From Agrypnia vestita (lineage: Eukaryota; Arthropoda; Insecta; Trichoptera; Phryganeidae), in the NCBI GenBank assembly GCA_016648135.1, contig JADDOH010002125.1, positions 25,286 through 89,285 on the forward strand: a stretch of 64,000 nucleotides of DNA, given 5' to 3'. Position 1 is the first letter of the stretch. Every line of letters begins with the position of its first letter. The translations under genes and the position numbers were made by a program. A model generated the notes under the pieces. That model saw nothing but the letters and a program-made list of their open reading frames with translations, ran no database searches and was not told where the DNA came from. Positions 15,101 through 21,100 of the stretch are shown here, one piece after another.

Positions 15101-18100
15101 TGTGGTGTGGTTATAAACGGTGTATGGTTATACCACAATACAAATACCATATACAATAATTGTATTTGGGAAAGTGACAGGCAGACAAGAGTAGTGTGGT
15201 TATGTTCGCAGGCCTGCCGCGGCGGAGCAGGACAGCACATACCAGGGATACCATCTCTCCTACGAAGTGAAAAAACTCATGTATGATTAGAAGAAGTGTA
15301 CCTTATTTATTCATAGTCATTTCCTCTCTTTTTCAAGTAGATGTTAGTATTAGAAAAATAACAGTTTATCATCTGGCATGCTGGGATGTGAAAAGCCTAC
15401 ATCATTGTGTCATTATCTTATTTGTCTTTATTTATTTTAAAAATATTTTCATTGCGCTTAAATAATCTCTCAGTCAAGATGATTATTTTAGTCCCCAGAA
15501 GAGTATTTTTTCTGTCATTGAAAATTTTTCTGCCATTTCCAATTGTGTTGTAGTTATAAAAAAATCTAGTTATTGAAATTTTTATATAATTCAATGAGTG
15601 ACCACTTTTAAAGTAAAGTCATGTTTGCATACCGACTCACTTCACATAATATGTACCTACAGGCAATAAGCACGCTTTTTATTTGTACTGTTGCTAGTAT
15701 TATGTACTTATTTGCATTTATTTATGAAATTCTATTAGTATTATTACATTACTCGTACTTGCTTTTTAAAAACACAATGGCTGTTTGATTTCTTAATTTT
15801 GAAATTAAGTACCTACATAAATCTGTATTCTGCACATCTTAGTCCACATATATCATATATCCCTTGTCAATGTGACAATAATTTTACTAATAGGGTAGTT
15901 GCACATAAATTAATAAAAACCACTAATGATAAATGCGTTGTTTGACTGAATGCATCTTATAGAGAGTCCTACTTTACCTACACGCTTTCAAAATGATTTA
16001 AGACCTCCGTGTTTGAAATTTACGTGTTTTGGACAGAATTAATGATGTTAAAATCAAATTATCAGAGAATTTTTATTACTTATACAGTAGAACCTCGTTA
16101 ATAAGAAATCAAGGAACCCAAAAAAACATTTTGAATGAAAAATTCTGTAAAATCCCATTCATTCGAAATTCAAGAAAACCAAAAAAATGATTATGTGATT
16201 CTGAAATTCTCGAAAAATCATAAAACTCACGAAAAAGCTGTTAATTTTATGAAAAATGTATGTATTTCATTACTTAAGTACCCGATATTGACATACCTAC
16301 TTGCTGTTCTCACTTGCAAAAGGAATCTAATTATTTTTTCCATTTCGTCATGTTTGGATGACCATACCGAAAATGTTTACAGTTTATTTTTAAATTTGTG
16401 GAGGGAATCTTCAATCTTTACTCAATTTTCACTTTCGATTCTGCCTGTTTTCTGACTCAGAGAAACCCACAGTGTAGTTATTAGAAATATTGTATACCTA
16501 TATAATCGTCCATAAATATGTAAAATAATAAGATAAGTCTGTAATAATTTCTTCCAAAGAAAATTAAACATTTTAACAACACAAACATAGTTATTATACA
16601 AAAATCAAACTAAAGGGTAGTTGAAAAAGCAAAAATCCATTTTGAACGCATTTAATTTCGAGAAATTAGCACATACTAAATCTATCTGCGCATATAAAGG
16701 CAACCAACTGAAGAAAGCATGCAAAGGATTCCCTAAATTTAGCGCCGCAAAATTCATAAAGAACGCTCTTCACAGAAGAAATTCACAGATGTGCTCGATC
16801 AAAAAGCCACATACATTAATAGTTTTTTAAAACTTGTTTAAAAAATTTTGAATTGGCTGAACATCCGTTTTGCAAATTATCAAATGTGTCAAATTGCATC
16901 GATAGATCATGCCCTTTCAAGACAATGAACGAGATGCCGTCTGAATCTAATATCGAATAAACATTGCACTTTTGTCACATATTTTCGTATTCGTTGCTAA
17001 AACAGTAAGGTTTTGATGGTCATATATTTTTTGATTTCGAGCGCCAGTGGAATACCCAGGCGTCCCCGCAGAACTACTATTTGTGTAAAAATGTTCACAT
17101 ATTTTAACTTTTGTCAAATGCTTGTATATTATTTGAGTTGAATTATTATTTTCTGTAAAGAATTTAAGAAAAATATTAATGATTCTGCACTCCTTTTTCA
17201 ATTAATGCACATTGTAATATGACGATCACAAAATAATTACGCCCACGCATAAATGTTGATCATTTGACTAAAATCCCGAACCGAATTGGGAATGGAAACG
17301 CTCGAGGCGTCTTGAGGATTTATCTTGACTCATTTGAATTTAATATATGTGATTTAAGCTACTGATACACATGCTTATTAGTGGCACGTGAGTATGCGCA
17401 GTATCGACCTTCTTTAGGCCTTGCTTATTAGTGGCATGTGTGTACGCACATTGCTATGCCACTTAGTGGCATGCTCCAATATCAACTGCTGGTTGATTTA
17501 TGAGAATGCCACTAAGTGGCATACCTCTAATAAACATGTGTATCTGTAGCTTTACTCAATCCTGCGTGTTTTGTGATGTATTTCGCTTCTGTAATTGAGC
17601 CTCCTGGCCTATTGAAGCGTAAAAAAAAAAATCTTCAATTGTCGAGGCTGGACCGCTGGACTAAACATAGCAAAACGGACGGATGCACATTCAAAGCTAA
17701 AAAGGATGAAACTGTTTGACAAATTCATATAAAACCTTATTAAATTGGAGATATCAATTGCTTTCGATAGTATAATACAATATTACTTCAAATTAAAGCA
17801 AATTTGACATAGATATACATCTTCTACTGACTTTAAATCAAAAATAATAAGCAGCCGTAAACTGACATATGCCTCTACCGGCATGCGGAGACTGATTTGA
17901 AAAATACGCCATTTGTTGACATATTTCTTTGAAATTTTTATTTTTAAATAATAATTAAGATTAATGTTTTATAATAAAAAAAACTAACTAATTCAAAATG
18001 CATGCATAAATCAATATATCAATATATATATATATACTAGCTGATTGGCCCGGCTTCGCTCGGGATCATAATTCGGTAAGCATAGAATTGTGTTGACGTC

Positions 18101-21100
18101 TCTTTTTTGCTGGTTTCGGCACCTGTGATTGGATTGCCTTGCTGGACCGTCTTCGTTTTGCGAAAATATCAACAGATGTTTTAGCAAAGCAATCATAACA
18201 CTCTAGATGTCTAGAGAGAACCTTTCAAAACTTTATAGAGCATAGAATATAGAAAAGCATAGCTTGTAAAACATTCTGGAATCATCTAGAACTTTCCCTT
18301 TTCAGAACCTTCTAGAGCATTATAATTCGTTCCGGAACCTCTAGACCCACCGACTCACTTCCCGCTCAGTTTGAAACCTTATAGATCTTTCTGATAGCTT
18401 GTAGAACTTTCTCCTTCCAGAACTTTCTAGAAAATTCTCAAACCCTCTAGAAATTTCCGGAACCGTTTAAACTCGCCGACACACTCCGCAATTCAGTTTG
18501 GAATCTTATAGAGCTTTCTGATACCTTCTCCATCCAGATCTTTCTAGAGCATTCTGGAACCGTCTCTTAATCTTTTGGAACCTTCTAGGCTCACCGATAA
18601 ACTCAACCATTCAGTTTGGAACCTTATAGAACCTTTTTAAACTTTCTCCTTCCAGAACCTTAATGAACGTTCTGGAACCTTCTAGACCCCCAGACATACA
18701 CCACATTGTTTGGAATGTTAGGGAACTTTCTGAAAAAAATCTACTCTAGAATGGTTCTGGAAGGAGAACGTTCTAGAGAATTCCCGAAAGTTCTATAAGG
18801 TTCCAAACTAAGTGGCAGAGTGTGCCGGTGAGTCAAAAACGTTTCAGAATGTCCGGTAAAACTCTATAAAGTTCCAGAAGAGGAGTGTTCTAAAAGATTC
18901 CCGAAAGTTCTATAAGGTTCCAAACTAAGAGGTCAGTCTAGAAAATTCCAGAACGTTTGATAAAGGTCTAGAAAGTTCTAGTGGCGGAGTGTATCTGTGA
19001 CTTTATAAGGTTCCAGACCATTAGATAAAGGTCAAGAATGTTCTAGATGGAGAATGTTTTAGAAAATTCCCGAAAGTTCTCTGACGTTCCAAACAGTATG
19101 GCGGAGTGTGTCTGTAAGTCTAGAAAGTTCCAGATCCAGAAAGATCCAGAGTCGATAAAGCTTTAGAAGGTTCTGGAAGGAGAATGATCTAGAAGATTAT
19201 TAAAAATTCTATAAGGTTCCAAACTGAGTAGCGAAGTGTTTCGGTATGTCCAGAAGGTTCCAGAACGTTCTAGAAGGTTCTCGAATGCTTAAGAAGTTTC
19301 TGGAAACAGTAAGTTCCATAAGGTTCCAAAGTGAGTGGCGAAGTATGCCGGTGAGTCTTGATGGTTCCGGAACGTTTGATAAAGCTGTAGAAAGTTCTGG
19401 AAAGAGAATGTTCTAGAATATTCCCAAAAGTTCTATAAGGTTATAAACTGAGTGCGGAGAGTGTCAGTGAGACCAGAAGATTCCAGAACGTTAGACAAAG
19501 GTCTAGAAAGTTCTGGAAGGAGAACGTTCTAGAAGATTTTCAAAAGTTCTGTAAGGGTTCAAGGGTTCAAACAAAGTGGTAGAGTGTTTTGGTGATTGTA
19601 GAAAGTTCCAGAACGTTTGATAAAGTTATAGAATGTTCTGGAAGGAGAACGTTCTAGAAGATTCTTTATTCTTCTAAAGAAAGTTCTCTAAAGTTCCAAA
19701 CAGTGTGGTGGAGTGTTTCTGGGGTCCAGAAGGTTCCGGAAAGTTCTAGAGGGTTAGAGAATTCTCTAGAAAGTTCTGGAAGGAGAAAGTTCTACAAGCT
19801 ATCAGAAAGATCTATAAGGTTTCAAACTGAGTGGAGGAGTGCATCTGATCAAATGGTCTAGAGGTTCCAGAAAGAATTGTAGAAAGTTCTGGAAAGAGAA
19901 AGTTCTAGAAGATTCCAGAAAGTTCTTTAAAATTTCGGAACGCTCTACAAAGTTTTGGAAGGTTCTTTCTAGAGTGTTATGATTGTGCGCTAAAATATCT
20001 ATTAATATTTTGGCAAAGCTTAGACGGTCCAGCAAGGCAATCCAATCACAACATAATTCTATTCTTACCGAATTACGGTCCCGAGCGAAGCCGGGCCAAT
20101 CAGCTAGTACAATATATTGTTTAAAATCATCTCTTTATATGAAAAAAGCATTTGAAAATCACCAAAAAATTTTAAAAATTTCTTTTACTGTAATTTTAAA
20201 AAATATTGAACATTTCTTAATTATTTTAGTATGGTTTATCCATCAATATGCTAGCTTTAAACTCATTTAAAAAAAAAAACATATTTTGAGTACATATAAA
20301 AATTCAGTAAAAATTAATCTTGCTTAAGATACTAAAAACTAATTTTTTGACTGTGGCCTGTCGATTTATGTTTATATTTTCTTAATTATTGTAAATAATT
20401 TATTTATTTATTTTAAAGGTTCACAAACAATGAAAAACACACAACATGATATAGATGATACAATTATAATTCAATTAGTTTAAATGCTTTTCATCACTTA
20501 AATGTGAACACGGCTAACATAGAGATAAAATAAAGGCTAAAACATCTCCAAAGAAAGAAAAGAAAAAAGTGATTTTATAGAGTGACATTAAATAAAGAGA
20601 CTAAACAGCTAATTTCACAATTTTGGTAATAGTTCTCTTATATTAGTGGAAACTGTCATGGAATATGTCAATGAAGACGCTATGGTTACTTTCTATTTTG
20701 TTGTACGACCTCAATATTCTAGATAAAGAATTAAAGTGGGCCATATTGTTATTGTAAGTTGAAAGAGCAAATGTATTATATGTCCTAATTCGGCGACTAG
20801 GAACATTCAAAGTTATGTTTTCTATACAAAATTCCAATTCAGTATTACCTTGTATATTATATTATATAGGTATATTATTAACTCAGCAATTAGTCTTCTA
20901 ACTTCCAATTTGTCTACATGAAAATATTCTAAGGGCTTTTGATAAGATACTAAAGTGCTGCCCAGATTACACTTAAATGTAAGCATGCGAAGAAATTTTT
21001 GCTGTACAGATTCTATCATATTTTTGTATGTTATGTAATGAGGTGACCAAATGACACAACCAAATTCCAAATTGCTGCGAACCAATGAATTATATAAACA

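What the first reader, a model, noticed from the sequence alone, without database searches (positions are those of the whole stretch)
18037..20107. Palindromic Helitron-type element packed with perfect heat-shock elements
Both ends carry the same Helitron-3'-like hairpin plus CTAG in opposite orientation. The 1.7-kb interior is a two-armed array of alternating GAA/TTC at 5-bp spacing. 19,253-19,285 has seven perfect alternating pentamers and 19,898-19,925 six; three or more suffice for HSF binding. Helitrons that spread heat-shock elements are known in C. elegans; a palindromic insect version inside a BK-channel intron, if active, would be a mobile heat-response enhancer. The array is dense enough to bind many HSF trimers.
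Basis: partly seen in the sequence, partly recalled or inferred. Interest (0 to 1): 0.88.

Follow-up and report, generated by a model that had tools for sequence, protein, structure and literature searches.

The report
Nested Helitron carrying heat-shock-element array
A jumping-DNA stretch in a potassium-channel intron of an arthropod-like genome is packed with copies of the heat-shock factor's binding motif; it belongs to a dispersed Helitron family that carries such arrays, and its palindrome most likely arose when one copy landed backwards inside another.

Summary
18037-20107 carries the same hairpin+CTAG end twice in opposite orientation, and 22 runs of three or more alternating GAA/TTC pentamers at exact 5-bp spacing (1000 shuffles: mean 0.108, maximum 2).

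It is a canonical non-autonomous Helitron, but not a mobile palindrome. The joined flanks match a dispersed host repeat; 16 of 16 fetched uninserted copies read GTAAA^TACAATA or a near variant, so the inserted unit is 18011-20107: 5' TC, 3' CTAG, between A and T, no duplication. The left "end" lies 26 bp inside it. The arms are 78.7% identical, while the left arm has relatives at 92%. No other of 40 scored genomic candidates holds the junction. So a second family member probably landed backwards in the first one's (TA)n tract and a deletion fused them.

The larger result is the family: 25 of 25 contig-order loci carry such runs, and the genome holds 21,629 five-pentamer matches against 4 for the reversed control. 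I found HSE-rich Helitrons reported only for Caenorhabditis (listings). HSF binding is untested.

The parts
18011..20107 (+). Whole inserted unit: non-autonomous Helitron, 5' TC ... CTAG 3', inserted between host A (18010) and T (20108)
   Evidence: Alignment with 16 of 16 fetched paralogous empty sites of the flanking host repeat (16 of 38 found): none holds the 26-bp tract or the element
18011..18036 (+). 5' terminus of the outer Helitron, TCAATATATC(AT)n
   Evidence: The motif occurs once in the window, here; in 5 other fetched loci (two of them a near-identical pair) it occurs only at family 5' ends. Family 5' ends read A|TCAAT in 15 of 17
18037..18731 (-). Left arm: 3' portion (about 695 bp) of a second, inverted family member with part of its HSE array
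   Evidence: Closest relatives 92% over about 690 bp (L021, L015), only 78.7% to the right arm (rank 34 of 48); alignments to 21 of 46 relatives stop at 18727-18732, 19 stop earlier, 6 run 5-62 bp past 18732
18037..18064 (-). 3'-terminal hairpin + CTAG of the nested inverted copy
   Evidence: Exact match to the family 3' end, 118 exact genomic copies
18732..18734 (.). Fusion junction between the nested copy and the outer copy
   Evidence: Of 40 scored genomic candidates for 18660-18810 only the window spans it in full. Most other hits end at 72 or start at 76; a few overlap it by up to 16 bp and C10640 spans 1-135 at 78%; C10640 and C2284 were read and are ordinary one-directional copies
18735..20107 (+). 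Right arm: array and 3' end of the outer Helitron (its 5' ~250-280 bp are missing)
   Evidence: Alignments to 22 of 47 relatives start at 18734-18736, 24 later, 1 earlier; usual copies have AAAGAAACCCGTG... and further 5' sequence before this point
20080..20107 (+). 3'-terminal hairpin + CTAG of the outer Helitron, followed by host T
   Evidence: family-wide 49 of 51 distinct 3' ends are followed by T
19253..19285 (+). Seven perfect alternating GAA/TTC pentamers
19898..19925 (+). Six perfect alternating GAA/TTC pentamers
18415..18437 (+). Five perfect alternating pentamers in the nested inverted copy

Best explanation
18011-20107 is one copy of a large non-autonomous Helitron family whose body is a tandem array of roughly 117-bp units built of heat-shock elements. 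It inserted between A and T of a dispersed repeat in a slo intron (boundaries shown; the rolling-circle step is inferred from the Helitron marks). A younger member of the same family then inserted in the opposite orientation into the first one's 5' (TA)n tract, and a deletion removed the younger copy's 5' part and about 250-280 bp of the older copy's 5' part, leaving two 3' ends facing outwards (inferred from the junction, the arm divergences and the empty sites). The array is expected to bind HSF trimers after heat shock and could act as a heat-responsive enhancer, as Helitron-borne HSEs do in Caenorhabditis (inferred; not shown). Any effect on slo is conjecture.
For: Ends and target: CTAG in 47 of 51 distinct 3' ends, T next in 49 of 51; A|TCAAT in 15 of 17 5' ends; 16 of 16 empty sites. 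Nested origin: arm identities, junction positions, no second copy of the junction among 40 scored of 1298 candidates, TC-(TA)n tract just outside the inverted 3' end. HSE: 22 runs against a shuffle mean of 0.108; 36 perfect 9-of-9 sites in the element against 1 in the rest of the window; 25 of 25 contig-order loci with HSE runs; genome-wide 21,629 against 4 control matches for five pentamers; 17 of 37 clusters lie downstream of an exact family 5' end in the right orientation and 0 in the wrong one. Core positions are less diverged than other array positions after correction for base (permutation p 0.0002). HSF-1 binding and heat induction by such arrays in Caenorhabditis: PMC6927752.
Against: Selection on the HSEs is not clear: the lower divergence of cores rests on their A and T positions; the key G/C positions diverge 12.9% (G) and 11.6% (C) against 11.0% and 13.6% elsewhere in the array. 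Copies are old (4-24% from the consensus), so present activity is doubtful. No autonomous partner was found: in four Rep/Hel loci read, the family's 3' end was not found in the stretch held and there was no HSE array. From the right arm's side the left arm is not far below its best relatives (78.7% against 82.3%, rank 23 of 48). A second 3'-to-3' copy (L064) shows no 5' TC tract beside it.
Confidence: 0.8

Rival explanations
1. One reading: a palindromic Helitron with two functional 3' ends is itself the mobile unit.
For: Perfect 28-bp ends in both orientations; a second 3'-to-3' copy exists at C372 (L064, arms 1282 and 441 bp, 91% identical over 430 bp), with A left and T right and no 5' tract.
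Against: Window: empty sites put the unit at 18011-20107, the left arm's nearest relatives are other copies, no second copy of the junction among 40 scored candidates. The two palindromic copies have different junctions. 46 of 47 other loci one-directional within the stretch held.
Confidence: 0.06
2. The TC...inverted 3' end...CTAG composite formed elsewhere and transposed here as one unit, through bypass of the internal end or template switching.
For: The unit has proper 5' TC and 3' CTAG and a precise empty site; 3'-end bypass is documented for Helraiser (PMC4778049, passages seen).
Against: No other scored genomic candidate shares the junction (40 of 1298 scored).
Confidence: 0.14
3. The HSE arrays are a passive product of tandem amplification of a GAANNTTCNN-type unit, without any HSF-dependent role for the element or the host.
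For: Key G/C core positions not clearly better conserved; arrays sit in non-autonomous copies; HSE triplets in runs diverge 6.7% against 8.7% for isolated ones (p about 0.02), a small effect that sequence context or alignment bias could give.
Against: In-phase alternation at exactly 5 bp over a family this large is what HSF binds; cores as a whole diverge less than other positions (p 0.0002) and GAA is the least diverged of 17 triplet classes, though AAC is close; the same association in Caenorhabditis proved functional (PMC6927752).
Confidence: 0.4
4. A foldback or TIR DNA transposon with TA target duplication.
For: Long inverted repeats and TA next to both CTAG ends.
Against: Empty sites show no duplication and an asymmetric 5' tract; the ordinary family copies read have no inverted terminal repeat.
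Confidence: 0.01

Closest known systems
HSE-bearing Helitrons of Caenorhabditis (Helitron1_CE, HelitronY4_CE, Y1_CE, Y1A_CE, Helitron2_CE; Garrigues et al. 2019, PMC6927752: sections 5, 6, 9 read, other passages seen)
   Same: Helitrons holding dense, overlapping heat-shock elements, up to tens or more per copy; they supply very many HSEs to the genome
   Different: Arthropod-like host; different family; ~117-bp tandem units in a non-autonomous family; HSF binding not shown. The paper found the association only in Caenorhabditis among the UCSC metazoans it scanned and said it 'may be restricted' to that genus; it scanned those with NGAANNTCCNNGGAN, as printed
Helitron-2 154-bp tandem repeats of Drosophila virilis (PMC3833285, passages seen)
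   Same: Insect Helitron with an internal medium-sized tandem array
   Different: No HSE content reported in the passages seen; 154-bp unit
DINE-1/Helentron elements spreading MSL-complex binding sites in D. miranda (cited in PMC4067079, passages seen)
   Same: Rolling-circle element dispersing binding sites of a regulator in an insect
   Different: Helentron-type ends; dosage-compensation factor, not HSF
Hel-2 non-autonomous Helitrons of Lepidoptera (PMC4344730, passages seen)
   Same: 5' TC, 3' CTAG, A/T flanks, 3' hairpin, variable internal repeat
   Different: Tetranucleotide microsatellite instead of an HSE array

Membership tests
Helitron (canonical) | 5' terminus TC | tested here: met
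   18011 by 16 of 16 empty sites; family A|TCAAT 15 of 17
Helitron (canonical) | 3' terminus CTRR (CTAG) | tested here: met
   20104-20107; CTAG in 47 of 51 distinct family 3' ends, the others GTAG (2), CTGG, CTAA
Helitron (canonical) | Hairpin a few bases before the 3' end | tested here: met
   CCCGAGCGAAGCCGGG 12 bases before the end; fold z-score -1.5, 16 of 200 shuffles fold as well, so sequence position rather than energy supports it
Helitron (canonical) | Insertion between A and T, no target-site duplication | tested here: met
Helitron (canonical) | Mobilised by a Rep/helicase with matching ends | tested here: inconclusive
   102 Helitron_like_N matches in the genome, some with open frames of 1565-1605 aa; in the 4 loci read the family's 3' end was not found in the stretch held; the true 3' end was seen for one of these families only (L059)
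HSE-bearing (HSF-recruiting) Helitrons | HSEs enriched in the family over chance and over flanks | tested here: met
HSE-bearing (HSF-recruiting) Helitrons | HSF binding in vivo after heat shock | not testable with these tools
   No ChIP data
HSE-bearing (HSF-recruiting) Helitrons | Heat induction of neighbouring genes | not testable with these tools
   No expression data
Palindromic Helitron as mobile unit | Both inverted 3' ends are the boundaries of the insertion | tested here: not met
   Left boundary is 18011, not 18037; not tested for the second copy, C372
Foldback/TIR transposon | Target-site duplication at both ends | tested here: not met

The most novel reading that the evidence does not exclude
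Outside nematodes, an arthropod Helitron family has independently evolved tandem heat-shock-element arrays and seeded thousands of strong HSF-binding platforms across a 1.3-Gb genome, enough to sequester HSF or to draw genes such as slo into the heat-shock response.
Probability: 0.35. Interest if true: 0.88.

Novelty: new member of a known kind. Interest (0 to 1): 0.64.

Why it matters
The only case I found of Helitrons loading a genome with heat-shock elements is Caenorhabditis, and that study, which scanned the UCSC metazoan genomes with annotated Helitrons, suggested it may be confined there (PMC6927752, section 9). A second, unrelated case would show that rolling-circle transposons and the HSF motif meet repeatedly, and would let one ask whether tens of thousands of HSEs titrate HSF, whether heat mobilises such families, and how often genes become heat-inducible by insertion. 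The search listings showed no arthropod report; only listed titles and abstract starts were seen, and subscription papers are mostly not in that library. The palindrome itself is probably an ordinary nested insertion.

Tried and rejected
Palindrome as mobile unit: rejected for the window copy by empty sites, arm divergence and the junction search. TIR/TA transposon: rejected. Autonomous partner: four Rep/Hel loci were read (L059-L062). The family's 3' end, at up to 9 mismatches, was not found in the 8.6-9.9 kb held of each, and there was no HSE array (one 3-pentamer run in L059, none in the others). Only 0.4-2.0 kb upstream of the frames was held, and only for L059 was another 3' end seen, so the partner remains unknown. 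HSE cores under selection: tested on 31 of the 49 oriented sequences, chosen by hand as long copies; mixed result. Viral contigs with the 22-bp 3' end: 0 matches. Rfam: no match at 17500-20700 at gathering scores. Host identity by COI (PF00115) did not complete. The empty site of the second palindromic copy did not complete. PF03493 was sent once, not answered and not repeated.

Rows dropped: eight loci were left out of the oriented set as duplicates or overlapping cuts (L002, L003, L004, L043, L051, L052, L055, L058); L006 and L011 gave no 3' end at up to 5 mismatches. The set has 49 sequences: the window in both orientations and 47 other loci. L005/L008 and L024/L025 are near-identical pairs (97-99%, probably alleles), so the 47 are not all independent. 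tabulates 25 of the 49, chosen because a 5' end could be placed, the window included. Loci L029-L057 hold only 1.5 kb upstream of the 3' end, so inversions further off would be missed.
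Full report
WHAT IS THERE. Slo exons lie at about 766-846 (Drosophila Slo residues 623-649), 26.69-26.92 kb (799-877) and 31.12-31.49 kb (1014-1137), all on the plus strand. The element therefore sits inside the slo gene between coding exons. The 31-kb exon differs from Drosophila slowpoke at 6 of 124 residues by my count of the printed alignment. That is arthropod-like; 'insect' is likely but unproven.

ENDS. The 28-bp sequence CCCGAGCGAAGCCGGGCCAATCAGCTAG occurs at 18037-18064 (-) and 20080-20107 (+) and nowhere else in the window at up to 3 mismatches. 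The genome holds 118 exact copies and none of the reversed control. In the fetched loci, 51 distinct 3' ends read CTAG in 47 and are followed by T in 49. Ordinary copies have one such end; their other end reads A|TCAAT...(TA)n AAAGAAACCCGTG, with A before TC in 15 of 17 that could be placed. The 21-bp 5' subterminal word has 4290 exact genomic copies, none of its control. These are the marks of a canonical Helitron (TC, CTRR, 3' hairpin, A^T target; definition as in PMC6544945 and PMC4778049, passages seen).

WHERE THE INSERTION BEGINS AND ENDS. The sequence just left of 18037 is TCAATATATCAATATATATATATATA (18011-18036). It matches the family's 5' end motif and is the motif's only match in the window; in five other fetched loci it occurs only at family 5' ends. 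I joined 17861-18010 to 20108-20257 and searched the genome. The query matches the window in two halves, and 38 other places at 72-81% identity, all 38 across the join (40 of 2043 candidates scored). I fetched 16 of the 38. All 16 run straight through, reading GTAAATACAATA or a near variant (the base after the break is T in most, C in L067), with no 26-bp tract. The inserted unit is therefore 18011-20107: a precise A^T insertion without target duplication. The left 'end' at 18037 is internal. This refutes the palindromic mobile unit, and a TIR element, for this copy.

WHY IT LOOKS PALINDROMIC. The left arm (18037-18731, inverted) is 92.4% and 91.9% identical to its nearest relatives but only 78.7% to the right arm, which ranks 34th of 48 for it. 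The right arm's best relative is 82.3%, and the left arm ranks 23rd of 48 for it. The arms thus come from two family members of different age, the inverted one apparently younger. Alignments of the left arm stop at 18727-18732 in 21 of 46 relatives (19 earlier, 6 up to 62 bp further); those of the right arm start at 18734-18736 in 22 of 47 (24 later, 1 earlier). In the genome only the window spans the junction in full (40 of 1298 candidates scored). Most other hits to the 151-bp query end at 72 or start at 76. A few overlap the junction by up to 16 bp, and C10640 matches 1-135 at 78%. C10640 and C2284 (L023) were read and are ordinary one-directional copies. Simplest account: a younger member landed backwards in the (TA)n tract of the older one, an ideal A^T target, and a deletion removed the younger copy's 5' part with about 250-280 bp of the older copy's 5' part. 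Of 47 other loci, 46 are one-directional within the stretch held. The exception, C372 (L064), is a second 3'-to-3' copy with a different junction and no 5' tract at its flank; its arms are 91% alike, much as the right arm is to other copies, so its origin stays open.

THE HEAT-SHOCK ELEMENTS. The element has 22 runs of 3 or more alternating GAA/TTC pentamers at 5-bp steps, 8 of 4 or more, and a longest run of 7. In 1000 dinucleotide shuffles the mean is 0.108 and the maximum 2; the rest of the window has 1 run. Spacing is sharply phased: GAA to TTC at +5 occurs 44 times, at +4 never and at +6 twice. Perfect 9-of-9 HSE cores: 36 in the element, 1 in the other 61.9 kb. The array consists of units of about 117 bp whose consensus carries several in-phase HSE blocks. 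The 25 copies tabulated (of 49 sequences, the window included) have 5 to 35 such runs, with 3 runs in total in the flanks held. All 25 contig-order loci (the first 30 of 118 exact 3' ends, less 5 duplicates) have runs within 1.5 kb of the 3' end, 2 to 22 each.

GENOME SCALE. The five-pentamer pattern has 10,820 plus- and 10,809 minus-strand matches; the same pattern read backwards has 2 and 2. A six-pentamer run counts on both strands, so the number of sites is nearer half. The first 100 places form 37 clusters. Seventeen lie within 4 kb downstream of an exact family 5' end in the right orientation and none in the wrong orientation; chance is about 1.3% per cluster. By extrapolation (rough; first contigs only) there are some 8,000 clusters. 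The remaining 20 clusters are not assigned; mutated family copies are likely but untested.

FUNCTION. Tests for selection were mixed. Over 31 aligned copies, HSE core positions diverge less than other array positions after correction for base (permutation p 0.0002), and the spacers inside HSEs diverge most (11.9%). But the effect lies in the core A and T positions (3.5% and 4.7% against 8.1% and 8.5% elsewhere in the array). The key G and C positions diverge 12.9% and 11.6% against 11.0% and 13.6%. GAA/TTC triplets in runs diverge 6.7%, those in runs of one or two 8.7% (p about 0.02); GAA is the least diverged of 17 triplet classes, with AAC close behind. Sequence context and alignment anchoring could give the same pattern, so it is not clear that HSF binding has been maintained. 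Copies are 4-24% from the consensus; the family looks old. What is shown is a very strong in-phase HSE array. That HSF binds it is inference from the motif and from Caenorhabditis, where Helitron HSEs bind HSF-1 and make neighbours heat-inducible (PMC6927752, sections 5, 6, 9 read and other passages seen). An effect on slo is conjecture.

PARTNER. The genome has 102 Helitron_like_N matches, several in open frames of 1565-1605 aa. In the four loci read, the family's 3' end was not found in the stretch held and there is no HSE array. The window itself holds a decayed Pif1-type helicase at 41.2-42.75 kb. The family's own transposase is unidentified.

VERDICT. Observation confirmed; palindromic Helitron rejected for this copy in favour of a nested, collapsed pair; the family-wide HSE load is real and extends a phenomenon that, in the open library, I found only for nematodes (listings).

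Noticed in passing
window 41194-42748 (+) and 43111-43123: Decayed Helitron-type Pif1 helicase (PF05970 and PF21530) in broken frames, with a related 3'-hairpin-like sequence (2 mismatches in 13) nearby
   Followed up: partly
L064 (G000:C372:505400-510000): Second copy of the family with two outward 3' ends, 1740 bp, 17 HSE runs, different junction and no 5' TC tract; mode of origin open
   Followed up: partly
window flanks 17861-18010 and 20108-20257; L065-L080: The Helitron sits inside another dispersed repeat with at least 38 genomic relatives at 72-81% identity; the repeat was not classified
   Followed up: partly
L059-L062 (C19569, C6576, C401, C6958): Rep/helicase Helitrons with open frames of 1565-1605 aa; the two pairs are 99.6% (5395 bp) and 98.7% (4175 bp) identical, suggesting recent Helitron activity of other families in this genome
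   Followed up: partly
L024 and L025: Near-identical flanks (about 98.8%) but one carries about 785 bp more inside the element, with almost the same number of HSE runs (29 and 30)
   Followed up: no
window 50221-51231 (-): 336-aa open frame, Ser/Asn-rich, no Pfam match at E 0.01
   Followed up: no
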